Shown piece by piece: positions 41,956 to 61,783 of a stretch of 64,000 nucleotides of DNA. Source of the stretch: Bradyrhizobium prioriisuperbiae (GTDB lineage: Bacteria > Pseudomonadota > Alphaproteobacteria > Rhizobiales > Xanthobacteraceae); assembly GCF_032397745.1 (NCBI RefSeq), contig NZ_CP135921.1:7738501-7802500 (forward strand), written 5' to 3'. Each line of letters starts with the position of its first letter. The stretch's first letter is position 1. The notes beneath the pieces are model-generated. The model saw only the letters and a list, made by a program, of their open reading frames with translations. It did no database searches and was not told the DNA's origin. A program made the translations under genes and the position numbers.

Positions 41956-42864
41956 ATGGCCGTCACCGAGAGCAGGCAGCGTGCGTCGTCCGATCAGCTA
42001 AGCGCGTCTAATGCCAAGTCCCTTAAACCAGAATACCCAATGCTCGGACTCTTGAGAGACGCGTTTCCATATCGGATCCCAGGCCCGAGATTTGGACGAT
42101 ATGCATCTTTGGTGATGGTCGCCCCATGCAATATGGCGTGTCCCTATTGTGATGTCGGTGGATACGCCAAGGACGACGATCACAATCTACCTGGCTGGTC
42201 TCCCATTTCTCTTAGGGAAATCGAAGCTTTCGTCGACGAAGAGGTCGACCGCGGACGGATAATCTATCTTACCGGAGGCGAGCCTCTCATGTTTCCCGAA
42301 CTCGTAGCTCATATTGGCGCGAAAGTGCGAAGGCGCGGCGGCTATACCAGCGTGGCTACCAACGCAAGTGCGCGCCAACGACTTCGTATGGTCAGCCCTC
42401 ACGTCGACGAGTTTAGCGTCAGCCTTAAGGGCACACCACAGACGGCAGCGAGCACATCAGGCGTAACCGGACGCCTGGCATTCGACCTGCCTCATCAAAA
42501 CACACTTGGCCTTCTGAATACTCCTGGCATTACCCTTGAGCTCGTGGTCGTTCTGTTTGATGCGCTCACGTACGAGAACTTCTGCGAGATCTATCGCCCA
42601 TTCTTTGGCCGGGCCTATCTCACGTTGAAGCAATACCGGCCGAAGATTACGACCGTTCACAAGGAACATTCATACACTACCGTTCTCCTTGAGGATCGCG
42701 CGCACGCTGAGGTGCAGCCTATGTCGCTGGATCGCGCGCACGACCTCTTCAGGCGGTTGGTGAAATCGTACCCGGAGCATGGCGCGTATTTCGGTCTTGT
42801 TACCGGTGGTGGCGGCGATCAACACGTATTCAGGGGTGACGAAGAACATTTTTTTCAGCGCTAG
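41956..42864 (+). CDS. Radical SAM protein without C-terminal cluster domain
   Basis: This 302-residue enzyme has the cluster-binding CNMACPYC motif (Cys58, Cys62, Cys65) and the SAM-binding TGGEP (residues 106-110). After the barrel (to about residue 230) there is no Cys-rich SPASM or twitch domain, so only one 4Fe-4S cluster is expected. GGAGA precedes the ATG. It lies 11 bases before a second radical SAM gene, so the two are read together. The first 40 residues are a polar extension. Reaction and substrate are unknown; it may act on a small amino-acid-like substrate or a peptide. Confidence 0.9.
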   Translation: MAVTESRQRASSDQLSASNAKSLKPEYPMLGLLRDAFPYRIPGPRFGRYASLVMVAPCNMACPYCDVGGYAKDDDHNLPGWSPISLREIEAFVDEEVDRGRIIYLTGGEPLMFPELVAHIGAKVRRRGGYTSVATNASARQRLRMVSPHVDEFSVSLKGTPQTAASTSGVTGRLAFDLPHQNTLGLLNTPGITLELVVVLFDALTYENFCEIYRPFFGRAYLTLKQYRPKITTVHKEHSYTTVLLEDRAHAEVQPMSLDRAHDLFRRLVKSYPEHGAYFGLVTGGGGDQHVFRGDEEHFFQR

Positions 42865-42875
42865 TGGAGAGCGCA

Positions 42876-43862
42876 ATGTTAAATCATGTGTTTATACGTC
42901 TGCTCGATACCTGCAATCTTGAATGTGCGCATTGCTACGCATCTTGCGGGCCGAAGGCCCCTGACCGTCTTCCGATGGAGGCCGTCCTCGGTCTTACTAG
43001 ACAGCTCGGGTCGTTGCAGCCACGGCACGTCCACCTAGAGGGTGGTGAGGCGTTTGCTTATCGAGGCTTCTGGGATGTGCTCGACGCGCTGAATTTGAAC
43101 AATATCAAGCCCGCGATCACGTCGAATGGCCTGATCGTCGACGAGCGTTTAATCGCAAGACTTGTCGGACGCGTGAGCAAGCTGACCTTCAGTATCGATG
43201 GACATACTGCGGAGGTGCACGACCAGATTCGACGACGCAAGGGATCGTTCGATCGAGCGGTAAATGCCGTCCAGCTTTCGGTGCAGGCCAAGATACCAAC
43301 ACATATGATTTCGGTCGTTTGGAAGAAGAGCGTCGACCATGCCGACGATCTGGTTGCCCTTGCCGAACGTTTGGTGGTCGAAAGGCTATTGCTCTTCAGC
43401 TGCGGGCGCATTGGCGCGGCTGTGCACCATTGGGAGGAGCTTAGCTGCGACTTCGAGGCCTGGACTCGATACCTGAAGCGAGTAAGAGTGCTGGCAAGGA
43501 CACGGCCTTGGATCTGGTTTGAGGTCGATCGTGTGCGCCGCGAAGAACTGGGTTCCTATATCGACGACGACTACCGTCCGATCTGTGTTCGCGCACCACG
43601 GGACTCGGTGACTATCGACCCACGTGGAGATGTCTATCCCTGTGGCTATTTCATCCCGCTCAAGAAATCCCTTGGAAGCATCCTGGAAGCACCGCTTGCC
43701 GAAATTGTACGGCGTGAACAAGACGGCGAGCGATACAGCGGCGCCTGCAAGGACCCTTGGAAGGTCCGCTCCGACGGTATTGTGGAGCTCTGCAAGCTAT
43801 ACTCAGTGAACTATGCCGGGTTGCCCGATGCGTCACGGCCGGCAGGGCAGACTGCAGAATAA
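42876..43862 (+). CDS. Radical SAM protein with SPASM/twitch-like C-terminal domain
   Basis: This 328-residue enzyme has CNLECAHC (Cys13, Cys17, Cys20) and HLEGGEAF for SAM binding. The C-terminal third holds four spaced cysteines in PICVRAP, YPCGYF, GACKDP and ELCKLY, consistent with an auxiliary iron-sulfur cluster. I chose ATG 42876 (GGAGA upstream) over GTG 42864. SPASM enzymes often modify peptides, but no precursor peptide is seen nearby, so a carrier-bound or free substrate is also possible. It is paired with the preceding radical SAM gene. Confidence 0.9.
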   Translation: MLNHVFIRLLDTCNLECAHCYASCGPKAPDRLPMEAVLGLTRQLGSLQPRHVHLEGGEAFAYRGFWDVLDALNLNNIKPAITSNGLIVDERLIARLVGRVSKLTFSIDGHTAEVHDQIRRRKGSFDRAVNAVQLSVQAKIPTHMISVVWKKSVDHADDLVALAERLVVERLLLFSCGRIGAAVHHWEELSCDFEAWTRYLKRVRVLARTRPWIWFEVDRVRREELGSYIDDDYRPICVRAPRDSVTIDPRGDVYPCGYFIPLKKSLGSILEAPLAEIVRREQDGERYSGACKDPWKVRSDGIVELCKLYSVNYAGLPDASRPAGQTAE

Positions 43863-43905
43863 TCACGTTACATTTGGAGAACCGCGAGCTGAAATGGAGA
43901 TAGAT

Positions 43906-44730
43906 ATGCGGGACACATCTAAATCAAATAGATCATTGGTCGATCAGGAACGAGTGCTAGAATATGCAGAACATGGCTTCACGCTCGGTGACCAGCTTTT
44001 GACTGACGACGAGGCCGATGAGCTTTTTGAGATCATCAGCTCCGTAGTGACCGATGAGCACAACCCCCATCATCAAAGGGTACACGACTTTCGACATGGA
44101 GGGCGCCCCCTCCTACATATTCGCAATATGTGGCAGAGATTCGAGCAGTTCAACCGGCTGCATAAAAACGCACGGCTCATCAACGCTCTGAGCGACCTGA
44201 CCGGAGCTGAAAGCTTCAATCTTTGGCAAGATAGATTCTTCTACAAGCCGGCGGAATCTGGTGGTTTTCACACGTGGCACCAGGATGCTGCGTATTTACC
44301 CTTCATGCACCCATACAACCAATTGACGGCCTGGATCGCGTTAAATGACGCCGACGAAGAGAACGGAGCCATGTCTATGGTTCCTGGATCGCAGAATTGG
44401 GGCGACGCCAGCGAGTTTATAGAGGAGATCGCCTCTTACGCGGGCGACGACCGTCCTTTGCCAAACAACTATGGCGGTCGCGCTGTCGATGTTGAGCTGT
44501 GCCCAGTAAAGAAAGGCTGTGTGCATTTCCATACCGGCCTGACTTGGCATGCATCAGGCCCAAACTGGAGCTCACGTCCACGCTGCGGAATTGCACTCCA
44601 TTATGTGGTTGCGCCGGTGCGGTTCGATGCAACGCACAAATTTGCGAAGGACTACGGTGGCGCGCATGGCAATCTGCTGGATCCGGAACTCTATCCACTT
44701 GTCGCGATCAGTCACCCGGCAGTGGCCTAG
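43906..44730 (+). CDS. Phytanoyl-CoA dioxygenase (PhyH)-like Fe(II)/2-oxoglutarate oxygenase
   Basis: This 274-residue protein has the iron-binding triad His125-x-Asp127 in TWHQDAAY and His215 in LTWHASGPN, with Arg224 or Arg226 nine to eleven residues later for 2-oxoglutarate. The context W-x-A-L-N-D-A-D-E-E-N-G-A-M and MVPGSQNWG is typical of PhyH proteins. The ATG at 43906 has GGAG at good spacing; ATG 43894 is possible. PhyH-like enzymes in clusters hydroxylate or halogenate; a halogenase would lack the Asp, so hydroxylation or desaturation is expected. It lies 43 bases after the radical SAM gene. Confidence 0.9.
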   Translation: MRDTSKSNRSLVDQERVLEYAEHGFTLGDQLLTDDEADELFEIISSVVTDEHNPHHQRVHDFRHGGRPLLHIRNMWQRFEQFNRLHKNARLINALSDLTGAESFNLWQDRFFYKPAESGGFHTWHQDAAYLPFMHPYNQLTAWIALNDADEENGAMSMVPGSQNWGDASEFIEEIASYAGDDRPLPNNYGGRAVDVELCPVKKGCVHFHTGLTWHASGPNWSSRPRCGIALHYVVAPVRFDATHKFAKDYGGAHGNLLDPELYPLVAISHPAVA

Positions 44731-44774: not shown

Positions 44775-45743
44775 ATGCACTCAAGTTCACGCGCATCTCG
44801 AACAGCGACGGCGGAGGAGATTCCAATTCTGGATCTCGCGCTGAGTTCTCAGTCCGGTGGTTTTGCCTCATTAGCTCAGAAACTCAGGAGCGCGTGTCAA
44901 ACTTATGGCTTCTTCTACGTTTGCAATCATGGAATTCCGCGGGAAATATCCGACGCCGCTTTTGCGGCGTCGCGTCGGTACTTTGCACTTCCGTTCGAAG
45001 AAAAGCTCAAAGATAAGATAGACGAGAGGTTTCGACGCGGGTTCATGCCGCAGGGCATCAATCAGCATGCGGGCCACGTTCCAGATCTGCATGAGAGCTT
45101 TGACTTTATGATCGATCTGCCGGTCGACGATCCGGACGTAGCTGCTGGCCTCCCTCTACATGGCCCAAATCGATGGCCGAGCGCCCACCCGTGGTTACGC
45201 GAAGCTTCGGAAGCGTACCTCGTGGCAACTATCGGACTTGGTCAGAGGCTCCTGAAGTTATTTGCAGCCAGCCTCAGCATGGACGATGAATTCTTTCTAC
45301 GCTTTTGCAGAAAGCCGATGGTCGCCGCACGACTGCTCCATTACCTGGCACAGTCGGCAGAAGACAATGGCTTTGGCGCTGCACCGCATACCGACTTTGG
45401 CATGATCACGATTCTGGCGCAGGATGATGTAGGAGGATTAGAGATACAAAAACGAGACGGAAAATGGATCGGCGCGCCATTTATCCCGGATACGTTCGTC
45501 GTAAATCTTGGCGATCTATTCAAGATATGGACAAACGACGTGTATGTCTCGAATCCTCACAGGGTGATAGCTCCTGGCGGGAGAGAGCGCTTCTCGATCC
45601 CGATGTTCTTCAACCTTGACTATCGTACACCCGTTCAATGTTTGGATGTTTGCCTGCGTGAGGGCGACGTGCCGAAATACAAACCTACAACGTCCGGCGA
45701 CTATCTCCTCGGCCGATATAGGGAGGTCTTGAAATACGACTGA
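44775..45743 (+). CDS. Isopenicillin N synthase-like non-heme iron oxygenase
   Basis: This 322-residue protein of the 2-oxoglutarate/Fe(II) oxygenase superfamily has a DIOX N-terminal part (PILDLAL, then YGFFYVCNHGIP) and a complete active site: His205-x-Asp207 in PHTDFGM, His262 in SNPHRV and Arg272-x-Ser274 in RFSIP for 2-oxoglutarate. Such enzymes hydroxylate, desaturate, cyclise or cleave. The longer frame from 44499 overlaps the PhyH gene and is rejected. It follows PhyH by 44 bases. Confidence 0.9.
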   Translation: MHSSSRASRTATAEEIPILDLALSSQSGGFASLAQKLRSACQTYGFFYVCNHGIPREISDAAFAASRRYFALPFEEKLKDKIDERFRRGFMPQGINQHAGHVPDLHESFDFMIDLPVDDPDVAAGLPLHGPNRWPSAHPWLREASEAYLVATIGLGQRLLKLFAASLSMDDEFFLRFCRKPMVAARLLHYLAQSAEDNGFGAAPHTDFGMITILAQDDVGGLEIQKRDGKWIGAPFIPDTFVVNLGDLFKIWTNDVYVSNPHRVIAPGGRERFSIPMFFNLDYRTPVQCLDVCLREGDVPKYKPTTSGDYLLGRYREVLKYD

Positions 45744-45848: not shown

Positions 45849-46514
45849 ATGACTCAGCTAACGATCATCGGTAGCGAAAAATCTCGCACAATGCGTGTGT
45901 TGTGGATGGCCGCCGAGCTCGGTCTGGAATTTCGGCATATTCCCTGGGGAATCGAAGACGATGCATTGAGAGACGACCGCTTTCTACGTATAAACCCGAA
46001 TGGGCGCGTCCCTGCGATCATTGATGGCAGCTTTAGTCTATGGGAGTCGCTGGCGATCAATATGTATCTCGCCAAGAAATATGGAACAGTAAGCGACGAT
46101 TCTGCGCCGCTCTATCCTAGGTCGCTTGAGGGAGAGGCACTCGCCTGGCAGTGGACCCTTTGGGCAATGGCCGAGCTTGAGAAGCCGCTTGAAGCGATTC
46201 GATTTCACCGGTCCTTACAATCGGCTGATTGCAACGAGGCCGCTGCAATAGCGGCAATTCGTGAGCTGGACAGGCCCATGGCAGCCCTTGAGTCTGTGCT
46301 GATCCACCAGGAATATTTGCTGGGCAGAGATTTTTCCGTCGCGGATATCAATGTTGCTGGCGTTCTATCGCCCTCGCGTATCATCGAGCTACCGACGGAC
46401 CGATATCCCGCCATCCAGGCATGGACGCGTCGCTGCCACGGTCGTGACGCGGCGGTTCGTGTCCGTCGAAATGGTGGACGACACGACGCGCCTAGGTCCT
46501 TTCACCGAAAATAA
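45849..46514 (+). CDS. Glutathione S-transferase family protein
   Basis: This 221-residue protein has an N-terminal thioredoxin-like domain (TIIGSEKSRTMRVLWMAAEL, NPNGRVPAIIDG, SLWESLAINMYLAKKYG) and a helical C-terminal domain with the GRDFSVADINVAG capping motif. The last 20 residues are basic and atypical, which suggests some decay or a shifted end. In a biosynthetic cluster it may open an epoxide, isomerise an intermediate or detoxify. It is 105 bases after the IPNS-like gene and ends the first block of plus-strand genes. Confidence 0.88.
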   Translation: MTQLTIIGSEKSRTMRVLWMAAELGLEFRHIPWGIEDDALRDDRFLRINPNGRVPAIIDGSFSLWESLAINMYLAKKYGTVSDDSAPLYPRSLEGEALAWQWTLWAMAELEKPLEAIRFHRSLQSADCNEAAAIAAIRELDRPMAALESVLIHQEYLLGRDFSVADINVAGVLSPSRIIELPTDRYPAIQAWTRRCHGRDAAVRVRRNGGRHDAPRSFHRK

Positions 46515-46709: not shown

Positions 46710-47543
46710 TCACGGATAGCCGGAACCGGGAGCTTCGACCTCAAGGAGGTCGATCCGAGCAGACGACCTTCCGTGTTTGAGCTCTTGAGGAGAAGTAGCA
46801 GCACTTAGGCAAAACAGTGTTTTTCTATCATCACCGCCGAGAGCGCAAGCGACGCCTCGCCGTCCCGGAAGGTTAATTCTTCGCCGCTCTCTTCCCTCGC
46901 TGTCCAGCTGGACAAAGGCGCCCTCGCCAAATGAGGCGACCCAAATCGATCCGTCACGATCCAAACAAATGCCCGTGGGTCCTTCAGCGCATTCGAAACC
47001 TCGATTGAAGCGCAAGCCGCCGTCGGTATCGATGTCATACTCAGCCAGATATGCGCGATCCATCTCGGCAATCGTGAGCCGGCGGTGATCGGCGGAGACC
47101 GCGATTCCGGTAGGAAAGTGTAATCCCTCGGCTACGACGCGCATCTTGCCATCTGGCATGACCAAAATGATACGACCCGTAGCTCCTCGCTTTAGGGCTA
47201 GCGGCCAAGCGATGCCAAGGTCGCCGACATACGCGCGCCCCAATCCGTCGACGACCATATCGCCCAGCGTGCCGGCGGCAATGTGGGACAAATCCGCATA
47301 GAGCGATAGTTGCTCATTAGAGAAAGCGAGCAAACGCCTGCGAAAAGTTGTCAGAACCACAAGCCTACCGTCAGGCAGGACACCCATGCCGCAGGGAGCA
47401 TCGTTAAACGTTGCATGTTGCCGAAGGTCTCGTGAAGGGCCAATACTCAACAACTTTCGGGCGAGGCAATCGACGAACCAAAGTCGCCCTTGATGCCATC
47501 GCGGCCCCTCAAAATATTTCCCTCCATCGATCGCAGCTGTCAT
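46710..47543 (-). CDS. SMP-30/gluconolactonase family protein
   Basis: From ATG at 47543 the protein has 277 residues and opens KYFEGPRWHQGRLWFVDCLARKL, the metal-binding Glu start of SMP-30-type six-bladed propellers. Later blades show GMGVLPDGRLVVLT, LGDMVVDGLGRAYVGD and FPTGIAVSADHRRLTIAE with the expected Asn/Asp region partly replaced. A TTG at 47567 would add eight residues. These enzymes hydrolyse lactones or phosphotriesters with a divalent metal. It is the only minus-strand gene inside the cluster and is divergent from the FadD-like ligase across about 240 bases. Confidence 0.85.
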   Translation of the reverse strand: MTAAIDGGKYFEGPRWHQGRLWFVDCLARKLLSIGPSRDLRQHATFNDAPCGMGVLPDGRLVVLTTFRRRLLAFSNEQLSLYADLSHIAAGTLGDMVVDGLGRAYVGDLGIAWPLALKRGATGRIILVMPDGKMRVVAEGLHFPTGIAVSADHRRLTIAEMDRAYLAEYDIDTDGGLRFNRGFECAEGPTGICLDRDGSIWVASFGEGAFVQLDSEGRERRRINLPGRRGVACALGGDDRKTLFCLSAATSPQELKHGRSSARIDLLEVEAPGSGYP

Positions 47544-47780
47544 TCTCGATTTCGTCAAATCGGTCAAGGCCCGCCCCCTTCTCTCCGCTTTTCGGCTTGT
47601 ATGAACTCAGCGCAATCATCGACGCTGTGTCGAACTTGGCGTGGTCGCGATGCAACCGCGAGAATATTCTGCTCTGTAAAACAAAGTATGCTGGCACCGC
47701 GTGCTCGGCTTGGCGCTATATTGAAGCATCCATGCGAGAGACCGAGATTCAGTCTTTTACAAGAATTAAGGGAGAAGTTC

Positions 47781-49475
47781 TTGGAAGCGCATATCTGGGA
47801 GAAATCATATCCCGTTGGCACTCAGTGGGGAGCTCCGTTGCCTCCAGCCGCGACTATCGAGCACTTCCTCGAGAAGGCAGCAGATAAGCTGCCGGAAAGG
47901 GCAGCAGTCACATTTTATGATCAGGTCTTGACCTATTCAGAGTTATGGCAGCTTGCAAAGCGAGCGGCCAGGGGATTGCAGCAGCAGGGAGTGGGTCCGG
48001 GCGTGCAAGTCGGCCTACATCTTTCGAATTGTCCGCAATTGGTCATTTGTTTCTTCGCGATTCTGGTAGCCGGCGGACGTGTCGTGCTGCTTAATCCAGA
48101 ACTGGCTGAAGGCGAAATACGCAATCAAGTGGCGGATTCAGAGATCCGTTTAGCCATTACATTTGCAGCGACCAAAATCTCCGAACGCATCGCTCCGCTG
48201 CTGAAAAGTGGAGATCTAGATACACTAGTCGTTTGCACGGCGGAGGACCTGCCCTGCAGAGGGATTCTCTCCGTATCGCCCTCGTTTTACCGCACGCCCG
48301 AGCCGCGCGAGATGAAATTCAAGGACCTCATCGCCAATGACGGCTTGTTCGTTTACCATCCCCGGGGGGCACTGGATCGAGAGATTGCAGTCATTCTTTA
48401 CACGGGCGGGACGACAGGGCTACCGAAGGGAGTGATGCTTTCACATGCAGGCCTATGTGCGATGGTCAATATTGACCTCGCCTGGACTGGCAACTGCCGA
48501 CGCTACGGAAAGGACACGACGTTGGTCGTCCTGCCTCTCTTCCACGTCTTTGGCATGTCGATTCTTATGCTTTCTTCAATAGCTGCAGCTGCGCACATAG
48601 TTCTGCACGTGCGTTTCGATCCCGAACAGATTTTACTCGACATCAAGCGAATGCGCGTCACCACTTTTGCCGCTGTTCCAACCATGTACGCCGCGATTAT
48701 TGATCTGCTTGAAAGCAAGATATCTGACCTGTCCTCGCTAAGATATTGCACCTGCGGCGGCGCACCTATAGCCGCGGATATGCTTGCCAAGTTTGAGACG
48801 CTAACGGGGCAAATGCTGAGAGAGGGCTACGGCTTGACCGAGACCGCGGCAGTGGCAGCAATGCATCCCCTCGAAGGTCCGATACGGCCCGGCACCGTTG
48901 GCGTCCCTCAACCACACACCGTAATAGAAATTGTCGACTTTGAAACGGGTATGACTGTTCTGCCTCACGGCGAGCAAGGAGAGGTCTGCATTCGTGGCCC
49001 TCAATTGATGAGCGGGTACTGGAAGCAACCGGATGAGACGGCTTTTGTCTTTCGCGGTAACCGCTTCCACACGGGCGACATAGGCTTCCTCGACCAGGAT
49101 GGCTACCTTACTCTTGCTGATCGCAAGAAGGATATGATCATCTCGCTTGGCCACAAGGTCTTTCCTCGGCAGATTGAGGCGGCCATCTACATGCATCCCG
49201 ATGTCAACGAAGTAATCGTGATCGGCATTCCGCACCCCGAACTTGGCCAGGCCGCCAAAGCATTTATTGCGTTTAAACCTGGCCGACCAGAATTGAGCTT
49301 AAGGAAGGTCGCAGCCTTTCTGTCAAATAAGCTAGCCTGGTTCGAGATACCGGTTGCTGTGGAGATTCGGCCTAGCTTGCCGAAAACTGCTGTCGGAAAG
49401 CTCTCGAAGAAGAAGTTGCTAGACGAAATAGACGTAGCAACACGGCTTTCATCCGCATCAGATGCTGCCTATTAG
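47781..49475 (+). CDS. FadD-like acyl-CoA/acyl-AMP ligase
   Basis: I place the start at a TTG (47781) with AAGGGAGA six bases upstream, giving 564 residues; the longer open frame to 47490 overlaps the divergent gene. The protein has the P-loop YTGGTTGLPKGVM (208-220), PLFHVFGMS, EGYGLTETAA, GEVCIRGPQLMSGYW and the hinge RKKDMIISLGHKVFP. The catalytic C-terminal lysine lies in PKTAVGKLSKKKLL. It is closest in style to long-chain fatty-acid CoA ligases. It lacks FAAL-type motifs, so it may feed CoA thioesters to the KAS-like protein that follows. Confidence 0.88.
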   Translation: MEAHIWEKSYPVGTQWGAPLPPAATIEHFLEKAADKLPERAAVTFYDQVLTYSELWQLAKRAARGLQQQGVGPGVQVGLHLSNCPQLVICFFAILVAGGRVVLLNPELAEGEIRNQVADSEIRLAITFAATKISERIAPLLKSGDLDTLVVCTAEDLPCRGILSVSPSFYRTPEPREMKFKDLIANDGLFVYHPRGALDREIAVILYTGGTTGLPKGVMLSHAGLCAMVNIDLAWTGNCRRYGKDTTLVVLPLFHVFGMSILMLSSIAAAAHIVLHVRFDPEQILLDIKRMRVTTFAAVPTMYAAIIDLLESKISDLSSLRYCTCGGAPIAADMLAKFETLTGQMLREGYGLTETAAVAAMHPLEGPIRPGTVGVPQPHTVIEIVDFETGMTVLPHGEQGEVCIRGPQLMSGYWKQPDETAFVFRGNRFHTGDIGFLDQDGYLTLADRKKDMIISLGHKVFPRQIEAAIYMHPDVNEVIVIGIPHPELGQAAKAFIAFKPGRPELSLRKVAAFLSNKLAWFEIPVAVEIRPSLPKTAVGKLSKKKLLDEIDVATRLSSASDAAY

Positions 49476-52152: not shown

Positions 52153-52258
52153 CCTACGCTCCAGATGTTCGCACTTTGAGCCCATGTCCTTTACGATGCG
52201 ATGAATGGTAGGCCGCACTGCACCGCGAGAAATATGCAGACTGCTGATGGAGGATCTC

Positions 52259-52279
52259 ATGAAAGGGACGCCCCAATGA
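52259..52279 (+). CDS. Six-codon mini-ORF coupled to the carrier protein gene
   Basis: A GGAGG site at 52249-52253 precedes an ATG at 52259 that opens a six-codon frame (MKGTPQ) ending in TGA at 52277-52279. The stop overlaps the ATG of the carrier gene at 52276 (ATGA). The strong ribosome-binding site thus serves the mini-ORF, and the carrier is probably translated by re-initiation. It may instead be the scar of a small deletion. Confidence 0.4.
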   Translation: MKGTPQ

Positions 52280-53114: not shown

Positions 53115-54602
53115 ATGCCAGTTCCGAGCCGCCTCCAGTATCCCGCAGACATCGAGCCATTGGTAAATTTCATCGAGGAGACGCCGACAGAAGTGGTCGT
53201 TGAGCGTTTGTTGGAGAAGCTGCGTAACGGGCTTCCGCTCCAGACAGCATTAACGGCCTCGGCCCTGGCGGTGACTCGCTCCACCGATATGCCATCACAG
53301 CATCACGGCGGCCCTCTGCATTCGTTGGCGGGACTCTACGCGACCTCTAAGTTAGCTCATCGGCTCGACGGTGAGCGACGCTTCATCCCGGTGCTGCAAC
53401 ACGTAGTGCTTTCCAACAAAAATATCCGACACCCCGCGATGGGGCCATACCAGTTGCTCGAGTTCGAACCTCTTGATGCTGGCGGTGTCGAGGCTACCAA
53501 GTCCGCATTCCAGGCCGCCGTTGCGTGGGGCGACTACAACCATACAGATCATCTGTTTCTTTCACTCTGGAGCCAGATGCCAACCATAAAAGCCTTCGAT
53601 CTCCTCATTAGCGTGGCGATTCGAAAGAATTTCCATGATGATCATTATTTCATCTTGCCGGGCCTCCTGTGGCGCGCGTTTGAAACAGGCGTAATCGACA
53701 AGAGATACTTACCGCTGCTGATGCGGCCGGTCGTGCGCTACGTGACACGGCATCCGATTGTTTCCGATGATACGATCGCCTCGCCAATGCCGGCAATAGA
53801 CGCACTAATCGAAAAGCACGAACTTTTGACCCGTGTCCTGCGTCAGAAGACGGGGGACGATGAAACCCACGAAATCGGTCGCCTCGGCGAGGCCCTTGGC
53901 CGATGCGATGACTACGGCGATATTCCGCCGATGATCGCCGACGCGCTGGCTCGAGGATTGTCAATAGAGGGCGCTGGCGAGGCTCTCTCCATCGGTGCTT
54001 GCAGCCTATTCCTGCGCTCGCAGACCGGCAACCCAATGGACGTTCATCTTCACACCAGCGCAAATTTGCGACGCTACTTACTTGGTGTCGACGGTCTCAG
54101 CGTGAGCAACAAATTACTGCTGCTCTTAACCTGGCATACCGGACCAGAGATCCGTTTGACGCAGAGCCGAATGGATCCTGCGCAGCGGTCGACCCAGCCA
54201 ACGGCCCCGTCCGAGCCTGGGCGCTCGCAGGCAGGCCTCCTGGACGCTATAATTCAGAGTATTCATGCTCAGCCGCCGACCGATTGGTCAAAGGTGGTAA
54301 GCCAAGACCTCATGCTAGCCGTACCGGAAGTCAAGACGACTGTTAACCTGACGCAATATTACGTCCAGCATGGCTACAATTCGGAGGCGCTTATCGGAAA
54401 GCTAGCTGAAATTGCGTGTCACGATGACTTTACGGAAACCCACGCCGTCAAGCACCATCAATCTATCGTCGAAGAGTTTCATACTACGCGCGAACCTTGG
54501 CGATGGATGCATTTGGTATGCGGCGCGAAAGCAGCAGCGATCTCTTTCGGCAAGAGCACGGCCGTCTACGAGGAGTACCTGAAACTGGCGACGGCGGCTT
54601 AG
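53115..54602 (+). CDS. Unrecognised 495-residue protein with many histidines
   Basis: I do not recognise the family. The ATG at 53115 has GAGAGG at good spacing. The protein is mostly helical in appearance, without signal peptide or membrane segment. Near the N-terminus, MPSQHHGGPLHSLAGL holds His63, His64 and His69, followed by His82, His96 and His106; a middle NHTDHLFLSLW, a late VHLHTSANLRRYLLG and a C-terminal THAVKHHQSIVEEFH add more. Such repeated His clusters suggest a metal site, possibly di-iron or heme, but this is inference. A Pro/Ser-rich linker lies near residues 375-390. It stands alone, 551 bases after the carrier and 331 before the reductase. Confidence 0.85.
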   Translation: MPVPSRLQYPADIEPLVNFIEETPTEVVVERLLEKLRNGLPLQTALTASALAVTRSTDMPSQHHGGPLHSLAGLYATSKLAHRLDGERRFIPVLQHVVLSNKNIRHPAMGPYQLLEFEPLDAGGVEATKSAFQAAVAWGDYNHTDHLFLSLWSQMPTIKAFDLLISVAIRKNFHDDHYFILPGLLWRAFETGVIDKRYLPLLMRPVVRYVTRHPIVSDDTIASPMPAIDALIEKHELLTRVLRQKTGDDETHEIGRLGEALGRCDDYGDIPPMIADALARGLSIEGAGEALSIGACSLFLRSQTGNPMDVHLHTSANLRRYLLGVDGLSVSNKLLLLLTWHTGPEIRLTQSRMDPAQRSTQPTAPSEPGRSQAGLLDAIIQSIHAQPPTDWSKVVSQDLMLAVPEVKTTVNLTQYYVQHGYNSEALIGKLAEIACHDDFTETHAVKHHQSIVEEFHTTREPWRWMHLVCGAKAAAISFGKSTAVYEEYLKLATAA

Positions 54603-54933: not shown

Positions 54934-55923
54934 ATGATCCGGCGAAGATTGGGAAAGTCCGATCTCCATATCACACCCCTCGGCATCGGGACATGGGCGA
55001 TGGGTGGTCCCATCAAGAACTGGGGTCGAGGTCCTCAGTCCGACCACGACTCGCTCGCTGCGATGGAACGAGCACTTGATATGGGCGTGAATTGGATCGA
55101 CACCGCACCGGTCTACGGCATCGGTCATGCCGAAGAGCTTGTCGGTACCCTGCTCAAACGTAGGGCCGGCGGAACTAGGCCACTCATCTTCACAAAATGC
55201 GGAATACGCTGGGACAAGGACGAGAACTATACCTTAAGCCTCAGCGAGGCGTCACTGCGGCGCGAACTCGAGAAAAGCCTCCTAAGGCTCGGGGCGGAGG
55301 TCATTGATCTTTACCAGATCCATACTCCGTCTTATCCGCGGCGTTCACCGTACAAAGGTGGAATCGAAGAGGCGATGGTCGCTATGTCACGGTTCCGCGC
55401 GGAGGGCAAGGTCCGTGAAATCGGTATCTCAAATTGCGACGTGCCGCAAATCCAAGCCGCATTGTCGATCGCCGAGATCTCATGCCTGCAGCCACAATAT
55501 TCGCTGCTGCAGCGCGAGGTTGAGCAGCAGGTGCTACCCTTCTGCGCCCAGAAAGGAATCGGCGTAATAGTCTATTCGCCCATGCACTCAGGACTGCTTA
55601 GCGGCACGACATCAAAAGAGAAGTTGGCAAGCTTGCCTGAGGATGATTGGCGGCGGCGCCAGCCTGACTTTCAGGAGCCGAAGCTGTCTGTAAATCTAGA
55701 GCAGGCCGAACGGGTGAAGCGGGTCGCGAGGCGATATGGCTGCACGGCCGCGGAGATCGCGGTAGCTTGGACGCTGCGTACAAATTCGGTCACAGGTGCA
55801 ATTGTTGGTCTACGAAAACCTGAACAGGTGGACGCAGTGTTCGGGGCCGCGAGCCGCATCCTAAATAATAATGACATTGCTGAGATTGAGGGGGATCTGA
55901 TTAGGTCGCATAATGACCGATGA
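54934..55923 (+). CDS. Aldo/keto reductase
   Basis: This 329-residue NADPH-dependent oxidoreductase has the TIM-barrel pattern LHITPLGIGTWAMGG, the catalytic Asp56 and Tyr61 in WIDTAPVYG, Lys88 in FTKCG and the His in YQIHTPS. The C-terminal VTGAIVGLRKPEQV fits NADPH binding. It is close to the general stress protein 69/YhdN branch. In the cluster it likely reduces an aldehyde or ketone intermediate. GGAG precedes the ATG; the LOG-type gene follows by 64 bases. Confidence 0.92.
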   Translation: MIRRRLGKSDLHITPLGIGTWAMGGPIKNWGRGPQSDHDSLAAMERALDMGVNWIDTAPVYGIGHAEELVGTLLKRRAGGTRPLIFTKCGIRWDKDENYTLSLSEASLRRELEKSLLRLGAEVIDLYQIHTPSYPRRSPYKGGIEEAMVAMSRFRAEGKVREIGISNCDVPQIQAALSIAEISCLQPQYSLLQREVEQQVLPFCAQKGIGVIVYSPMHSGLLSGTTSKEKLASLPEDDWRRRQPDFQEPKLSVNLEQAERVKRVARRYGCTAAEIAVAWTLRTNSVTGAIVGLRKPEQVDAVFGAASRILNNNDIAEIEGDLIRSHNDR

Positions 55924-55987: not shown

Positions 55988-56560
55988 ATGTCTTACAATG
56001 CTTCGATAGCAGTGTTCTGCGGAGGAAGGCCCGGAGTTGACCCCTCCTTCTCGGTTGCGGCCGCCGAGCTCGGGCGAGGAATAGCAAAATTGGGCTTCCG
56101 CCTAGTATACGGGGGTGGTGGCGCTGGCATCATGGGTGCTCTTGCGGAGGCGGCCTTGATGGCCGGGGGCGATGTCGTAGGCGTGATCCCGGAATTCTTT
56201 ATGATGCGCGAGTCGGTGAACAGGCGCTGTACAGAGTTGATCGTGACACCAAACATGCACCTGCGGAAACGCCGCATGTTTGACATCGCGGATGCCTTCG
56301 TCGCAATGCCAGGCGGGTTAGGCACTCTGGATGAGACGTTCGAAATGTTGACGTCGCGTCAGCTAGGTCTTCACGACAAACCAATTCTTATCTGCGACGT
56401 AGCAGGATCGGCAGCTCCTCTGCTTGATGCGATCAGCGATCTAACCCGCATGGGCTTTGTTGCGGCGCCGGAACGCCTTTTCGAGGCGTTCCCATCCATC
56501 GACGCACTGCTTACCCGACTTCCCGCCATTTGGCCCCAAGGGCTGTTGGAGGCGCCCTAA
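55988..56560 (+). CDS. LOG-family nucleoside 5'-monophosphate phosphoribohydrolase
   Basis: This 190-residue protein from ATG 55988 (AGGTGAG upstream; a frame from 55913 is open) has the family motifs SIAVFCGGRPG at the N-terminus, LVYGGGGAGIMG, and MPGGLGTLDE with the catalytic Glu, preceded by RKRRMFDIAD. LOG enzymes release the base from cytokinin riboside monophosphate or AMP-like nucleotides. No isopentenyltransferase is near. In this cluster it might release a base or sugar phosphate from a nucleotide intermediate, or make a cytokinin; both are guesses. Confidence 0.88.
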   Translation: MSYNASIAVFCGGRPGVDPSFSVAAAELGRGIAKLGFRLVYGGGGAGIMGALAEAALMAGGDVVGVIPEFFMMRESVNRRCTELIVTPNMHLRKRRMFDIADAFVAMPGGLGTLDETFEMLTSRQLGLHDKPILICDVAGSAAPLLDAISDLTRMGFVAAPERLFEAFPSIDALLTRLPAIWPQGLLEAP

Positions 56561-56719: not shown

Positions 56720-57703
56720 ATGGCAGAATGGCACCTGCTTCAGCTTGGGTCGGCAATGCCGGGACCATACGCAACGGCACTAGATAGAGCCGGTCGGATC
56801 TTATCTGAATTTGTGCCCACGCAGGTAATTCCCCCCTGTAGGGGCGGCCTCCTTCACCAAGCGGGGTCCGCGCGCGCGCGGGCGGCGCTCCTTACGCGGA
56901 CCCTGTCCAGCGGCGCCGTTGCGGTACTTTCCGGCGGATGCGGCTTCAATGGCATGTCACTCGGCGATGCGATGCTCGCTGAAATCCTGCCGCATCTTCC
57001 GCAGGCTATGACGGGAACCATCGTTGGTGCAGCGGCGCATGCGCATGTATTGAGCGTACTAGCAACGCGTTTTCCAGGGCTGAGGGTCTTGGTTGGGACG
57101 CCAGTTGTGGAGACCATCGGTATGCCTGAGGATAGATCGTCAGCAGAAGCTGCAGCGCAGCAGTTGGTTAAGCTCTACCGAAATGGACCGCCGTTGCGCG
57201 AACTGCTCAAGAGAGCGCCGTGTGTTGCCTCCCACACCTGCAATACAAACGAATTAGAGTCGGGCGAGGCGCAGATTGTTCAAGCAGAGATACTCCGGGC
57301 GGGAAACGCCACCGGCGTGGCGATTGCGGGAAACATCTCCGCACTGAGCTTGCTTTCTGGCGGTCCCGACTGGCCCGAATCGACAGGCGCGATATTGTTT
57401 TTACAAAGCGCCGAAGCACGCCGACGAGATCTCGATCGGGCAATGAGCCGGCTCAAACTTCTCGGCGTTTTGGAACGTGCCGGCGCCATCATTGCTACGG
57501 TTCCGATTGCCGAAATTAGGACTCCGTTGGATCCATCACTCAGTAAGCTCTTTTCCGACGTCATGGAGGGCACGACATGCCCTGTCGTGATTAACGTGTT
57601 CGACGGACCCGGAGTTCAATCGTTGGAACTTGCGCTCGGCCGCCGCGCAATCATTGAAGTCCATCCAAGTCATGGGATCTTGAAATGGGAGGCAGATGGA
57701 TGA
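56720..57703 (+). CDS. Degenerate S66 (LD-carboxypeptidase/MccF-like) protein, predicted pseudoenzyme
   Basis: The 327-residue protein follows the S66 layout: AVLSGGCGFNGMSLGDAMLAEILPHL matches the GGYG...LLPYLD segment, and GAILFLQSAEARRRDLDRAMSRLKLLGVLERAGAI, split over two strands, matches the C-terminal Glu region. The catalytic residues are lost: nucleophile Ser of the GYSD motif is Ala105 (GAAAH), the Glu is Gln in LFLQS, and the His of FGH is Pro in FDGPG. It should therefore bind but not cut. AGGAG precedes the ATG. It is translationally coupled to the intact paralogue at 57700, so the two may form a heterodimer; S66 enzymes are dimers. Confidence 0.75.
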   Translation: MAEWHLLQLGSAMPGPYATALDRAGRILSEFVPTQVIPPCRGGLLHQAGSARARAALLTRTLSSGAVAVLSGGCGFNGMSLGDAMLAEILPHLPQAMTGTIVGAAAHAHVLSVLATRFPGLRVLVGTPVVETIGMPEDRSSAEAAAQQLVKLYRNGPPLRELLKRAPCVASHTCNTNELESGEAQIVQAEILRAGNATGVAIAGNISALSLLSGGPDWPESTGAILFLQSAEARRRDLDRAMSRLKLLGVLERAGAIIATVPIAEIRTPLDPSLSKLFSDVMEGTTCPVVINVFDGPGVQSLELALGRRAIIEVHPSHGILKWEADG

Positions 57704-58797
57704 CGGCGAACTCGGTTTCACTCGAAGTGGCTGGTTCAGGCTTCGATCTTCGGCGCGCACCACACCTGTCGGTCGGAGATACCATCCGGGTTGTCTGTCC
57801 CGGATGGCCGGCGCTAGCACTTATGAGCGAAGCGCGACGCGAGCGCGCGGAAGCCGCGCTCAGGGCTTTGGGCCTCAAGGTTAGTTATGGTAAGAATGCA
57901 TTCGCGCCTGTTGCACACGCCGCCGGCTCGGCGGCTGAACGCGCATCAGACATCAACGACGCTTTCAGAGATCCATCCGTCGCTGGCATCCTGTGCGCGA
58001 TCGGCGGCGTTCATTCGCTCGATCTGCTGCCGCTGCTTGACTACGACTGCATCGCTAGTAATCCAAAAATTTTCATCAGTCATTCAAACAATGCATCTCT
58101 CAACCTCGCGATCCTCGCAAAGGCGCGGCTAATCTCCTTTCAACCGGTGTGCTTCACCAATCACTTTGGTGAATTTCCCGCACCAGCCCCAGAGACACTG
58201 CAGAACTTTCAAATCGCTTGCATGAGCTGTGATCCAATTTATTTGCGACCGGTTGGGACAAGGACTGATGCGCCGTTGCCGTTTCTATTCGACCCGAGCC
58301 ATGATATGGCTGGCCGACCACGAAACCTGTCCGGCGGATGGCGTTGGCTCAGGCACGGTTGTGCGAGCGGCCCTCTTATCGGCGGCCTTCTTTCAACGCT
58401 TGTCGATGTAGCTGATACCGATTGGGCTCCATCTTTCGCGCGAGCAATTCTTTACTGGGACCTCACCCATTACAACGGCAATGTCGTGGCAGCGGATGCT
58501 TACCTTGCGGCGATGGCAAGACGAGGTATCCTTGCGCAGCTCTCAGGTATGATCGTCGGTTATCCGTGCCGGGTGCCTCGCCACGATTCGATGGCCTCAC
58601 TCGATGAAATAGTTGTGAAATGGTGCGCTGAGTTTGACGGGCCTATACTTGTGGATGCCGACTGTGGTCACACCGATCCGACCTGGGTGCTTCCACTCGG
58701 ATCAGATGGCCATCTCGATTCGCGCGCCGATGCGTTCTGGTGCGCCCCGGGCACAATGCCCACGTCCAGCCGGCCAGATCGCTCGCTCGCTAGGTAG
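57700..58797 (+). CDS. S66 family (LD-carboxypeptidase/microcin C immunity MccF-like) protein
   Basis: This 365-residue protein starts at ATG 57700, overlapping the upstream stop (ATGA), with GGGAGG upstream. S66 motifs: VGDTIRVVCPGWP, CAIGGVHSLDLLPLLDYD, ISHSNNASLNLAI with nucleophile Ser129, LYWDLTHYNG in the Glu position (Asp254) and DADCGHTDP with His324. The Glu to Asp change is unusual. Family members cut murein tetrapeptide or, in MccF, aminoacyl-nucleotide amide bonds as self-immunity. In this cluster it may process a peptide or nucleotide conjugate or protect the producer. No signal peptide is seen, so it is cytoplasmic. FAAL follows 7 bases later. Confidence 0.85.
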   Translation: MTANSVSLEVAGSGFDLRRAPHLSVGDTIRVVCPGWPALALMSEARRERAEAALRALGLKVSYGKNAFAPVAHAAGSAAERASDINDAFRDPSVAGILCAIGGVHSLDLLPLLDYDCIASNPKIFISHSNNASLNLAILAKARLISFQPVCFTNHFGEFPAPAPETLQNFQIACMSCDPIYLRPVGTRTDAPLPFLFDPSHDMAGRPRNLSGGWRWLRHGCASGPLIGGLLSTLVDVADTDWAPSFARAILYWDLTHYNGNVVAADAYLAAMARRGILAQLSGMIVGYPCRVPRHDSMASLDEIVVKWCAEFDGPILVDADCGHTDPTWVLPLGSDGHLDSRADAFWCAPGTMPTSSRPDRSLAR

Positions 58798-58804
58798 CTG
58801 TTCA

Positions 58805-60556
58805 ATGGACACGTTGACGGACATGATCGACTTTTACGCCGACACCTCCCCTGAGGCGCGAGCTCTCGTCTTTCTCAACAATGGCGAAGAAGTCGAGGCT
58901 TCGCTGACCTACCGCGAATTGCGGACGCGCTCTATGTTTTTAGCCTTGACTATGCGACGTTATGTTTCACGAAATTCACGAGCCGTATTGCTGTTCCCGC
59001 CCGGGCTAGACTTCATCGTGGCGTTCTTCGCGGCCCTTTACGCTGGTATTATTGCTGTTCCTCAGCCGCTGCAGCGACGCCACCTCAAAAAGCTGGAAGC
59101 CGTGATCTGGGATAGCGGCGCGTCCATGGTGATTGGACCAGAGTCAGCGCTAGCCCGGGTCCAACGAGAGTTGCAGATGCAGCGCCCAATGTATTGGATT
59201 CCCTATCCGGCGCCCCCCCCAACACAGGCTTCGGATGATGCTCTTGAGCCCCGCATGCGCTCCGACATTGCTTTGTTGCAATACACGTCGGGTACGACCG
59301 GCGGGTCGAAGGGAGTAATTCTGACGCACGGCAATATCATGGCCAATCAACGCCACATCAGCGACTGCTTCGGTCACCAAGCCGGTCTCGTTGGTGTCAG
59401 TTGGTTGCCTGCTTATCACGATATGGGCTTGATCGGTGGAATCCTGCAGCCGCTATTTAAGGGAGGAGTTGCCGTCCTGATGTCGCCTACCGCATTCTTG
59501 CAAAAGCCGGTGCGGTGGCTAGCTGCCATTTCCAGATTTGAAGCGCATTCTTCGGGCGCCCCGAACTTTGCTTACGATATATGTGTAGACCGCATTTCTC
59601 TGGAGCAGGAAGATTGTATCGATCTCCGTCACTGGCAGGTGGCCTTTGTAGGCGCAGAGTCCGTGCGATCCGAGACGCTCGAGCGCTTCGCGCAACGATT
59701 CGCCCGTCGAGGACTAAGCGGCGGCGCTCTTTACCCCTGCTATGGCCTAGCCGAGGCAACCCTTTTCGTGACCGGCGCGGAAAAAGGGCATGGGCCTACT
59801 ATCAAATCGTTTGATTGGGGAAGCGTTTATGGGCTTCGCAATGAGACAAACGAGAGGGGGGAGCGACCGCTCAGATTGACCAGTTCAGGTCGTATCACCA
59901 GTCACGTCCATGTCACCATAATTGATCCGTCTTCTCGTTGTGTTCTTCCAGAACGTACGCTCGGGGAGATCAAGGTCGATGGCCCTAGCGTATCGCCTGG
60001 GTATTGGAGTGCAGATGCAGACAGCGGAAGAAACGCATATCCTCACATAGATGGGGCTCTACCTCGCACGGTTCTAACGAAGGATCTTGGTTTCGTCTGC
60101 GACGGAGAATTATTCGTAGTCGGACGCAGCGATGACGCCATCGTCTTTGACGGCCGCAATTTCTATCCGCAGGATTTCGAGGTAGCGTTGTCGGCGTTCG
60201 ACGAACTATTAAACCAGAGCCGGGCTATCGTATTTGCCACCCTGTTGACTGGGCGTCCAGAACTGGTACTTGCCGTAGAGCTAAACGCTCATTGCAACTC
60301 TGAGCCTGCTCGGCTGAGCGACATCATCTTCGACGTTCGCCAAGCCTTTGCAGACGAAATGAACGTCATATTAAGCGGCGTTCAGGTGCTTCCCAAGGCA
60401 GCGCTGCCGATGACGTCCAGTGGCAAAGTTAAAAAGCTCGAGTATCGGCGGCTTTTCGAGATGAATGCCTGCAATCCGCTTGCAGAATGGGTCTCGCGTG
60501 GTTTGCGAAATAAACTTGATCAAGGCTCTGGAGTCAATGCGCCCGCGCATCCCTAA
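58805..60556 (+). CDS. Fatty acyl-AMP ligase (FAAL)
   Basis: The protein has 583 residues from ATG 58805 (AGGTAGC upstream). It shows the FAAL opening LTDMIDFYAD...RALVFLNNGEEVEASLTYREL, the P-loop QYTSGTTGGSKGV (159-171), the family hallmark WLPAYHDMGLIGGILQPLF (200-218) and SGAPNFAYDIC. The C-terminal hinge is GRSDDAIVFDGRNFYPQD and the end PMTSSGKVKKLEYRR. FAALs make acyl-AMP and load carrier proteins instead of CoA. The nearest partner is the carrier at 50593. It sits in a tight run with the S66 gene and P450. Confidence 0.93.
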   Translation: MDTLTDMIDFYADTSPEARALVFLNNGEEVEASLTYRELRTRSMFLALTMRRYVSRNSRAVLLFPPGLDFIVAFFAALYAGIIAVPQPLQRRHLKKLEAVIWDSGASMVIGPESALARVQRELQMQRPMYWIPYPAPPPTQASDDALEPRMRSDIALLQYTSGTTGGSKGVILTHGNIMANQRHISDCFGHQAGLVGVSWLPAYHDMGLIGGILQPLFKGGVAVLMSPTAFLQKPVRWLAAISRFEAHSSGAPNFAYDICVDRISLEQEDCIDLRHWQVAFVGAESVRSETLERFAQRFARRGLSGGALYPCYGLAEATLFVTGAEKGHGPTIKSFDWGSVYGLRNETNERGERPLRLTSSGRITSHVHVTIIDPSSRCVLPERTLGEIKVDGPSVSPGYWSADADSGRNAYPHIDGALPRTVLTKDLGFVCDGELFVVGRSDDAIVFDGRNFYPQDFEVALSAFDELLNQSRAIVFATLLTGRPELVLAVELNAHCNSEPARLSDIIFDVRQAFADEMNVILSGVQVLPKAALPMTSSGKVKKLEYRRLFEMNACNPLAEWVSRGLRNKLDQGSGVNAPAHP

Positions 60557-60589
60557 TGACTATCGATGCGATTCCGGGCAGGAGCGAGG

Positions 60590-61783
60590 ATGACTCTGTT
60601 CGATAGACATTTCTTGCATGATCCGTACCCAGAGTACGCACTTTTGCGCGACACAAAACCGGTAATGCAGCTAGGTTCGCTCAGCGGAAAGATTTGGTTC
60701 GTGACGCGATACGAGCATGTGCGGGAGGTACTCGAAAGCGACTCTTACGCTGAATACGACCTGCCAGCGATTATAGAGGCCAAGGTTGATCGCACGTCGG
60801 GCCGCGACAACGGTGAACTTGGCAAACGGCTTAGTAACTGGCTTTTCTTTATGTCACCTCCAAAGCATGCGATCATGAAGCGTTCTTTGGCTCCGCTTTA
60901 TGCCTTGAGAAATCTTGATCTCGCGCGGAATGCGGTCTGGTCGTATGCGCGAAGAATAGTGTGCAAGAGCACGCTAGAAGGCCCATGTGACACGATCCGT
61001 CAACTAGCGTCGCCGCTGCCGGTGGTTGCTACATCCACTCTTCTAGGCATATCGATCAACGATCGTGAGCACATCGCAAATCTTGCGTCCCAAGTACTAA
61101 GAGTGTTTGAACCACTTCAGCGCATGAGCATCTATGAAAGCGTTCAGGGCGGCTTAAACGGCCTTGACGTCGCGTTGTCATCACTTTCTCACGCTGAGGA
61201 GAGCCTGCGTACACTGGCCCGCCGAGCGGAGGCTAGCGCTTCACTTGCCAACTTGCCATCCGACGAGCTGCGTGCACTAGTCATAATGTTATTCGCTGCT
61301 GGACAAGACACCATATCCGCATCAATCGGAAACGCTGTATTCACTCTTGCAGCATCTCCCGAGTACTTCCGTTGCCTTCGGAAACACCCTGACATCATAC
61401 CAAATGCAGCGCGGGAGCTAATTCGATTCGATCCTCCAGTGCAAATTGTCGCTAGGGTGGCGAACAGCGATCAGGATCTGGGGGGGGCGTTCATACGAGT
61501 TGGCGAGCGTGTTTGCGTCGCACTCGGATCCGCCAATCGAGACGAGCGTCACGTTCCAGATGCAGGCACTTTGAATCTTGAACGCAGCGGCCTTGCTCAC
61601 GTGTCGTTCGGACTTGCTAGGCACTACTGTCTCGGCGCGCAACTCGCTTTAACGGTCCTTGAGGCCTTTCTTACCGCCCTTGTAGAGTGCGCAAGCAGCA
61701 TCCAGTTTGCCGGACCCTACCGCCGGCGCAGCAGCTACGTGTTCCGCGGGTTTGCAGAACTGCCAATTAAGTTTGCTCCATGA
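60590..61783 (+). CDS. Cytochrome P450
   Basis: This 397-residue monooxygenase starts at ATG 60590 with GGAG five bases upstream (an in-frame ATG at 60566 is less likely). It has the I-helix AGQDT (237-241) with oxygen-activating Asp-Thr, the ExxR pair Glu276 and Arg279, and the heme loop SFGLARHYCLGAQLA with Cys347; the second Gly of FGxG is replaced by Ala. It is a soluble class I bacterial P450 that needs ferredoxin and reductase from elsewhere, as none is encoded nearby. It may hydroxylate a carrier-bound acyl chain. Confidence 0.93.
   Translation: MTLFDRHFLHDPYPEYALLRDTKPVMQLGSLSGKIWFVTRYEHVREVLESDSYAEYDLPAIIEAKVDRTSGRDNGELGKRLSNWLFFMSPPKHAIMKRSLAPLYALRNLDLARNAVWSYARRIVCKSTLEGPCDTIRQLASPLPVVATSTLLGISINDREHIANLASQVLRVFEPLQRMSIYESVQGGLNGLDVALSSLSHAEESLRTLARRAEASASLANLPSDELRALVIMLFAAGQDTISASIGNAVFTLAASPEYFRCLRKHPDIIPNAARELIRFDPPVQIVARVANSDQDLGGAFIRVGERVCVALGSANRDERHVPDAGTLNLERSGLAHVSFGLARHYCLGAQLALTVLEAFLTALVECASSIQFAGPYRRRSSYVFRGFAELPIKFAP

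What the first reader, a model, noticed from the sequence alone, without database searches (positions are those of the whole stretch)
41956..61783. Megasynthase-free biosynthetic cluster with radical SAM, carrier protein, FAAL, KAS-like, S66 and LOG genes
Seen: within 20 kb, two radical SAM enzymes, two Fe oxygenases, a P450, two stand-alone carriers, two adenylating enzymes, a thiolase-fold protein, two S66 proteins, a LOG-type enzyme, reductase, GST and MFS exporter, with no NRPS or PKS modules. Known: FAALs load acyl chains on carriers, and MccF-type S66 enzymes can confer immunity to aminoacyl nucleotides. Inferred: an acyl- and amino-acid-derived product, possibly nucleotide-linked, built on free carriers. 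I know of no described pathway with this set.
Basis: partly seen in the sequence, partly recalled or inferred. Interest (0 to 1): 0.92.

Follow-up and report, generated by a model that had tools for sequence, protein, structure and literature searches.

The report
Orphan free-carrier antibiotic-like gene cluster
A block of 18 foreign-looking genes on a probably mobile stretch of a bacterial chromosome appears to build an unknown small molecule with loose, stand-alone carrier proteins instead of a giant assembly-line enzyme, and no described pathway with this gene set was found.

The parts
37411..37487 (+). tRNA-Arg (anticodon tcg), probable integration site
   Evidence: ARAGORN; Rfam RF00005
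37714..38925 (+). tyrosine integrase (Arm-DNA-bind_3, Phage_int_M, Phage_integrase)
   Evidence: Pfam
38937..39221 (-). small HTH_17 protein, excisionase-like by position
   Evidence: Pfam; role inferred
40662..41381 (+). GntR-type regulator
   Evidence: Pfam
41956..42864 (+). rSAM1, small radical SAM protein; narrow family, the three relatives with organism names are actinobacterial; predicted fold closest to pyruvate formate-lyase activase
42864..43862 (+). rSAM2, radical SAM with SPASM match
   Evidence: Pfam
43813..44730 (+). PhyH-type Fe(II) oxygenase
   Evidence: Pfam
44775..45743 (+). 2OG-Fe(II) oxygenase with DIOX_N domain
   Evidence: Pfam; best solved relative 9ovh E 7e-64
45849..46514 (+). 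glutathione S-transferase family protein
   Evidence: Pfam
46710..47567 (-). SMP-30/gluconolactonase family protein, opposite strand
   Evidence: Pfam
47688..49475 (+). ACS, PimA-like AMP-forming acid ligase
   Evidence: Pfam; NCBIfam TIGR03205 445 bits (below its cut-off 705.6); start candidates
49590..50540 (+). KSIII-like protein with C107/H259/D264, probable acyltransferase
   Evidence: Pfam PF08545; alignments; triad precedent PMC9573744
50587..50832 (+). ACP1, stand-alone carrier, TTG start
   Evidence: Pfam PP-binding 1.2e-8
50881..52152 (+). MFS transporter, exporter candidate
   Evidence: Pfam; NCBIfam
52201..52563 (+). ACP2, stand-alone carrier of PCP type
   Evidence: Pfam PP-binding 7.2e-15; best NCBIfam hits are NRPS models
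53115..54602 (+). HYP53, predicted questin-oxidase fold, probable non-heme iron oxygenase; possibly an independent insertion
54934..55923 (+). aldo-keto reductase
   Evidence: Pfam
55988..56560 (+). LOG-type (TIGR00730) protein with PGGxGTxxE motif; alternative start 55913
   Evidence: NCBIfam TIGR00730 163 bits, cut-off 96; starts; motif name recalled, letters seen
56720..57703 (+). S66a, S66 family, catalytic positions lost (Ser, Glu, His columns hold I, Q, P)
   Evidence: Pfam S66C only; alignment
57685..58797 (+). S66b, MccF-like; Ser and His kept, Glu replaced by Asp; candidate self-immunity hydrolase
   Evidence: Pfam; PDB MccF-like relatives; alignment
58805..60556 (+). FAAL-type fatty acyl-AMP ligase
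   Evidence: NCBIfam; solved relatives 7r7e (labelled polyketide synthase), 3kxw, FadD23
60566..61783 (+). cytochrome P450
   Evidence: Pfam; NCBIfam
63105..64000 (+). IS3-type transposase genes, continuing past the window; boundary with the conjugation module (context)
   Evidence: ORFs seen; family name from reading the sequence, not from a profile search

Best explanation
An orphan small-molecule cluster carried as cargo on an integrative-conjugative-type element. FAAL and the PimA-like ligase each adenylate an acid and charge the two free carriers (inferred from family). The KSIII-like enzyme takes the acyl group from one carrier onto Cys107, activated by His259-Asp264, and hands it to a second carrier or to an amine or hydroxyl acceptor, as reported for ChlB3 and CerJ; it probably does not make a C-C bond (inferred from the residue pattern). 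The two radical SAM enzymes, two or three iron oxygenases, the P450 and the aldo-keto reductase shape the building blocks (inferred). LOG probably releases or uses a nucleobase from a nucleotide, S66b protects the host by cleaving the finished product, and the MFS protein exports it (all inferred). Shown here: gene content, island context, catalytic-residue patterns, predicted fold of HYP53. Not shown: any substrate, product or activity.
For: Gene identities. KSIII-like family: 9 of 9 members aligned have C, H and D at positions 107, 259, 264; the canonical-type P0124 in the same alignment has the HQAN His and the GN Asn instead; the profile alignment to FabH 2ebd puts the family His opposite the canonical Asn. 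ChlB3 has Cys113-His296-Asp301, the same spacing, and hands 6MSA from ChlB1 to the carrier ChlB2 (PMC9573744, abstract and passages). An AMP-ligase match lies near the family gene in 7 of 9 plasmid loci opened, of 17 records matched. LOG lies next to it in 1 of 9 (Sphingobium); my rough after-the-fact expectation is 0.005, from 180 LOG places in 7.3 Gb and 193 kb examined. A LOG-type enzyme is proven in the angustmycin pathway (AgmA, PMC8599513, passages) and a distantly related nucleosidase, PtnC, is described for 8-azaguanine (PMC7109123, one passage). S66b is 28.7% identical to AgnC5 of agrocin 84. Integrase, tRNA, trb genes, coupling protein.
Against: By overall profile score the KSIII-like family is nearer to ordinary FabH structures (2ebd 1.6e-43) than to ChlB3 (3.2e-16) or CerJ (7.2e-15), although that profile contained one FabH-type row. 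The ChlB3 paper itself says that such homologues other than CerJ catalyse Claisen condensation, and gives DpsC as Ser-His-His. S66b is no closer to AgnC5 than to generic MccF-like proteins, and its catalytic Glu is Asp. LOG is common (167 plasmid records) and was not found in the other 8 KSIII-like loci. In a control of 7 stretches of this genome 2 had an AMP-ligase match. HYP53 relatives showed no KAS, rSAM, LOG or S66 match (0 of 26 loci) and HYP53 is flanked by the two widest gaps, so it may not belong. No att direct repeat was found. The FAAL is below the cut-off of the FAAL models listed. No second copy of the cluster was found, so co-inheritance of the whole set is untested.
Confidence: 0.5

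Rival explanations
1. The region is a mosaic: two or three unrelated gene sets (an rSAM/oxygenase block, a carrier/KSIII block, a LOG/S66/FAAL/P450 block) brought together by the mobile element, not one pathway.
For: Wide gaps around SGL and HYP53 and an opposite-strand SGL; HYP53 occurs elsewhere without the set; the rSAM1 relatives with organism names are actinobacterial while KSIII-like relatives are scattered over several phyla.
Against: 17 of 18 genes share a strand, with GC3 of 0.45-0.64 throughout, and LOG, from the last block here, is next to the KSIII-like gene in Sphingobium.
Confidence: 0.25
2. The KSIII-like protein is a C-C bond forming ketosynthase despite the altered residues, giving a beta-keto product that the aldo-keto reductase reduces.
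For: The family profile scores best against FabH-type structures (2ebd 1.6e-43); an aldo-keto reductase is present; the ChlB3 paper says that DpsC-type homologues do Claisen chemistry.
Against: The canonical His position holds V229 and the canonical Asn position H259; none of the 18 proteins is a malonyl transferase.
Confidence: 0.2
3. The product is an agrocin- or microcin C-like aminoacyl-nucleotide toxin acting on bacteria, with S66b as the immunity enzyme.
For: MccF-like S66b; the agrocin 84 plasmid also has an MccF-like gene next to PhyH-type and radical-SAM-like genes; LOG is a nucleotide enzyme family.
Against: The agrocin PhyH and radical SAM genes are only superfamily-level similar (E 9e-4 and 2e-3); no tRNA-synthetase or agnA homologue among the 18 proteins; S66b Glu to Asp.
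Confidence: 0.15

Closest known systems
ChlB3 / CerJ KSIII-like acyltransferases
   Same: Same superfamily; Cys-His-Asp with Asp five after His; ChlB3 hands its acyl group to a stand-alone carrier.
   Different: Distant: the family profile hits ChlB3 at 3.2e-16 and CerJ at 7.2e-15, far below FabH; here it sits with FAAL-type and PimA-like ligases.
KSIII-like locus of Sphingobium sp. TomTYG64 plasmid pTomTYG64b
   Same: LOG, KSIII-like, AMP ligase and carrier in one direction, with an MFS-looking protein between LOG and the KSIII-like gene (the MFS was read by eye and the window MFS does not match it).
   Different: No radical SAM, S66 or P450 match, and the only FAAL match falls on the one AMP ligase; genes annotated 4-hydroxyphenylacetate-3-hydroxylase, endopeptidase and cysteine synthase follow.
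Agrocin 84 cluster (pAgK84)
   Same: MccF-like, PhyH-type and radical-SAM-like genes side by side.
   Different: Only the MccF-like match is clear; KSIII, FAAL, carriers and LOG had no match in the 26-kb stretch examined.
Questin oxidase BTG13 and hydroquinone dioxygenase PaD
   Different: 11-12% identity, no Pfam match; BTG13 and a third match are from fungi by their labels, PaD's source was not shown.
Angustmycin and 8-azaguanine pathways
   Same: A LOG-type (AgmA) or distantly related (PtnC) nucleotide hydrolase.
   Different: Their other genes were not compared here.

Membership tests
ChlB3/CerJ-type KSIII-like acyltransferase | Cys-His-Asp triad with Asp five after His | tested here: met
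   C107, H259, D264 in 9 of 9 family members; precedent. Met at sequence level, no 3D model made
ChlB3/CerJ-type KSIII-like acyltransferase | closer to ChlB3/CerJ than to FabH by overall similarity | tested here: not met
   profile: 2ebd 1.6e-43, ChlB3 3.2e-16, CerJ 7.2e-15, (profile held one FabH-type row)
ChlB3/CerJ-type KSIII-like acyltransferase | acyl transfer without decarboxylative condensation | not testable with these tools
   needs enzyme assay
canonical KAS III (FabH) | Cys-His-Asn catalytic residues | tested here: not met
   V229 and H259 at the His and Asn positions
MccF (S66b) | Ser-Glu-His triad | tested here: not met
   Ser and His kept, Glu column is Asp; which columns are the triad is recalled
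MccF (S66a) | Ser-Glu-His triad | tested here: not met
   I, Q, P in those columns
LOG / TIGR00730 | score above curated subfamily cut-off | tested here: met
   163.3 bits against 96.35; the stricter cytokinin equivalog NF058542 is not met (133.3 against 300)
FAAL | score above a curated FAAL model cut-off | tested here: inconclusive
   top FAAL models below cut-off (345 of 775, 311 of 600) but above the CoA-ligase models; PDB hits include FadD23 and FadD32
questin oxidase fold (HYP53) | shared fold over most of the chain | tested here: met
questin oxidase fold (HYP53) | iron ligands | not testable with these tools
   eleven His and three Lys invariant in 108 sequences, but no ligand map was at hand
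integrative and conjugative element | integrase, relaxase, type IV transfer genes | tested here: met
   the relaxase reading rests on DUF3363, function recalled
integrative and conjugative element | direct repeat of the tRNA end at the far boundary | tested here: not met
   31-mer unique in genome at up to 3 mismatches; no 13-mer of the tRNA region repeated within 120 kb downstream
agrocin 84-type cluster | self-resistant tRNA synthetase and agnA homologue in the cluster | tested here: inconclusive
   none among the 18 proteins; the rest of the genome was not searched

The most novel reading that the evidence does not exclude
A new class of nucleobase- or nucleotide-acylated metabolite: LOG provides the base-derived acceptor, a ChlB3-type enzyme couples a FAAL-loaded, radical-SAM and iron-oxygenase-tailored acyl group to it from free carriers, and S66a/S66b form a dead/live heterodimer for self-protection.
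Probability: 0.1. Interest if true: 0.85.

Novelty: new variant of a known kind. Interest (0 to 1): 0.6.

Why it matters
It would add an orphan pathway with an unusual enzyme mix to free-carrier, non-modular biosynthesis, which module-based genome mining can miss. It points to a KSIII-like family with altered catalytic residues on plasmids and islands of diverse bacteria, and to a large bacterial protein family (1498 homologues at E 1e-3, no Pfam match in six members scanned) that appears to share the questin oxidase fold. Both claims can be tested with single purified proteins.

Tried and rejected
HYP53 as a marker of the cluster: 26 loci from genome contigs carried it without a KAS, rSAM, LOG, S66, GST or P450 match at E 1e-4; three (L004, L020, L027) had AMP-ligase matches; several contigs are short. 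2 of 297 order genomes matched, one of them the genome itself and one at E 7.5e-4. A neighbour survey in 22 loci gave no consistent partner; the ORF picker itself missed HYP53 in 5 of the 22.

rSAM1: 93 of 385 class genomes matched at E 1e-3, but every hit except the own genome was 28.7 bits or less and partial; 1 of 398 phylum genomes at E 1e-15, the own genome; no plasmid match. S66a: 1 of 385 class genomes at E 1e-10, the own genome, none on plasmids. KAS: 3 proteins in the large protein search, one being the query; 1 of 3 genus genomes, the own. Alignment A1 of the KAS family: 5 of 385 class genomes at E 1e-12, one the own genome, the other four weaker partial matches not examined. rSAM2 and FAAL plasmid searches gave only generic matches under 60% identity (126 and 1015 records). 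A viral-contig scan for rSAM1 gave one 28% partial match.

RiPP precursor: one small ORF with a ribosome-site-like motif in the gaps, 52661, judged unconvincing. Whole-cluster megablast against plasmids: no match. Papers: searches gave none; 69, 72, 87, 91, 111, 113, 123, 124 were seen as listings; passages were read in PMC8599513, PMC7109123 and PMC9573744; PMC7024214 was searched and gave no passage. HMMER profile of HYP53 against PDB: nothing useful. Questin oxidase iron-ligand details are recalled and were not used as evidence.
Full report
OBSERVATION. The interval holds 18 genes, 17 on the plus strand. Gaps are short within three runs (rSAM1 to GST; ACS to ACP2; AKR to P450, -50 to 159 bp) and wider around SGL (195 and 108 bp, with the ACS start used there) and the 53115 protein (551 and 331 bp). 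The block is poorer in GC than most of the window; gene GC3 is 0.45-0.64 throughout.

CONTEXT. Left of the block are tRNA-Arg, a tyrosine integrase, a small HTH_17 protein and a GntR regulator. Right of it are an IS3-type element (read by eye) and, on the minus strand, TrbI, TrbL, a TrbE-type ATPase, a T2SSE-type ATPase, a T4SS coupling protein and a DUF3363 protein. This is the make-up of an integrative and conjugative element with the cluster as cargo. The far attachment repeat was not found: the 31-base tRNA end is unique in the genome and no 13-mer of that region recurs within 120 kb, so the element may be rearranged or larger. The host genome (9.08 Mb, one contig) could not be named.

THE KSIII-LIKE ENZYME. 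It is rare: three proteins at E 1e-3 among 3563 candidates, including itself and one 78% relative. Plasmid relatives were found directly (2 records) and through the Nostoc relative (17 records, which include those 2); I opened 9 of the 17. In an alignment of the window protein, P0123 and seven plasmid relatives, all 9 have Cys at 107, His at 259 and Asp at 264, while the canonical-type P0124 has the HQAN His and GN Asn. Two opened loci (L060, L069) were not in that alignment. A profile of these rows aligned to FabH 2ebd places the family His opposite the canonical Asn and the Asp opposite a Ser. ChlB3 has Cys113-His296-Asp301, again with Asp five after His, as does CerJ by the paper's account; ChlB3 passes 6-methylsalicylate from ChlB1 to the carrier ChlB2, CerJ passes malonyl to a sugar hydroxyl (PMC9573744, abstract and passages). 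So acyl transfer is the likeliest role, and two free carriers and two AMP ligases beside it fit. Against it: the same profile scores FabH structures far above ChlB3 and CerJ (one FabH-type row was in the profile), and the paper says that homologues other than CerJ do Claisen condensation.

NEIGHBOURS OF THE FAMILY. An AMP-ligase match (E 1e-17 or better) lies in 7 of the 9 plasmid stretches opened (L030, L031, L055, L056, L057, L059, L060; not L058 or L069). In 7 control stretches of this genome 2 had one at E 1e-10, both in the NRPS/PKS area, so the enrichment is modest evidence. Only Sphingobium TomTYG64 also has LOG, with the KSIII-like gene and an AMP ligase with carrier following in one direction. 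From 180 LOG places in 7.3 Gb and 193 kb examined I would expect about 0.005 by chance; the calculation is after the fact and assumes even density. A S. meliloti relative has a tRNA-ligase gene nearby and another relative lies on pTML1 of Pseudoalteromonas sp. SANK 73390, which I recall as the thiomarinol producer.

S66 PAIR. S66b matches MccF-like structures (best 6.5e-32). Aligned with S66a and five other S66 proteins it keeps the Ser of the GYSD-type motif and the His of the GHT motif, with Asp for Glu; S66a has I, Q and P in the three columns (that these columns are the triad is recalled). S66a looks like a non-catalytic partner. Agrocin 84 has an MccF-like gene next to PhyH-type and radical-SAM-like genes, but only S66b resembles its counterpart clearly (28.7%), and no more than it resembles other MccF-like proteins.

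MECHANISM. Best reading, 0.5: acids are activated by FAAL and ACS, held on ACP1 and ACP2, passed on by the KSIII-like transferase, oxidised by the iron enzymes and P450, exported by the MFS protein, with LOG and S66b pointing to a nucleotide link and self-protection. A LOG-type enzyme is proven in angustmycin biosynthesis and a distantly related nucleosidase is described for 8-azaguanine. All substrates are inferred. Rivals are a mosaic of unrelated blocks (0.25), a true ketosynthase (0.2) and an agrocin-like toxin (0.15); they overlap with each other and with the main reading.

NOVELTY. No paper in the open library turned up that joins these features (seen as listings) and no plasmid record shares the DNA. 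Closed-access papers and antiSMASH's cluster library were not searched. I file it as an orphan variant of free-carrier biosynthesis, not a new principle.

Noticed in passing
G000 about 65 kb downstream, L065 4872-17011 (joined coordinates 128772-140914): A separate low-GC block with a 2606-aa two-module NRPS, a CN-hydrolase and an AMP ligase, followed by very long ORFs that look like a PKS; a second IS3 copy, near-identical over the residues shown, lies between them.
   Followed up: partly
HYP53 homologues, loci L002-L027: A large bacterial family without a Pfam match, with Acetobacteraceae and Stellaceae prominent among the named sources, and a predicted questin oxidase fold.
   Followed up: partly
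L055 (S. meliloti SM11 pSmeSM11b): KSIII-like gene with an iron-containing redox enzyme, acyl-CoA dehydrogenase, carrier, AMP ligase, NRPS and a class I tRNA ligase: another unexplained cluster; the KSIII-like gene is on 6 Sinorhizobium records.
   Followed up: no
window 11908-17006: Another low-GC stretch (0.51-0.53) with long minus-strand ORFs.
   Followed up: no
window 61818-62213: Minus-strand ORF that looks like a GFA-type glutathione-dependent protein, just after the P450; family name from reading the sequence, not searched.
   Followed up: no
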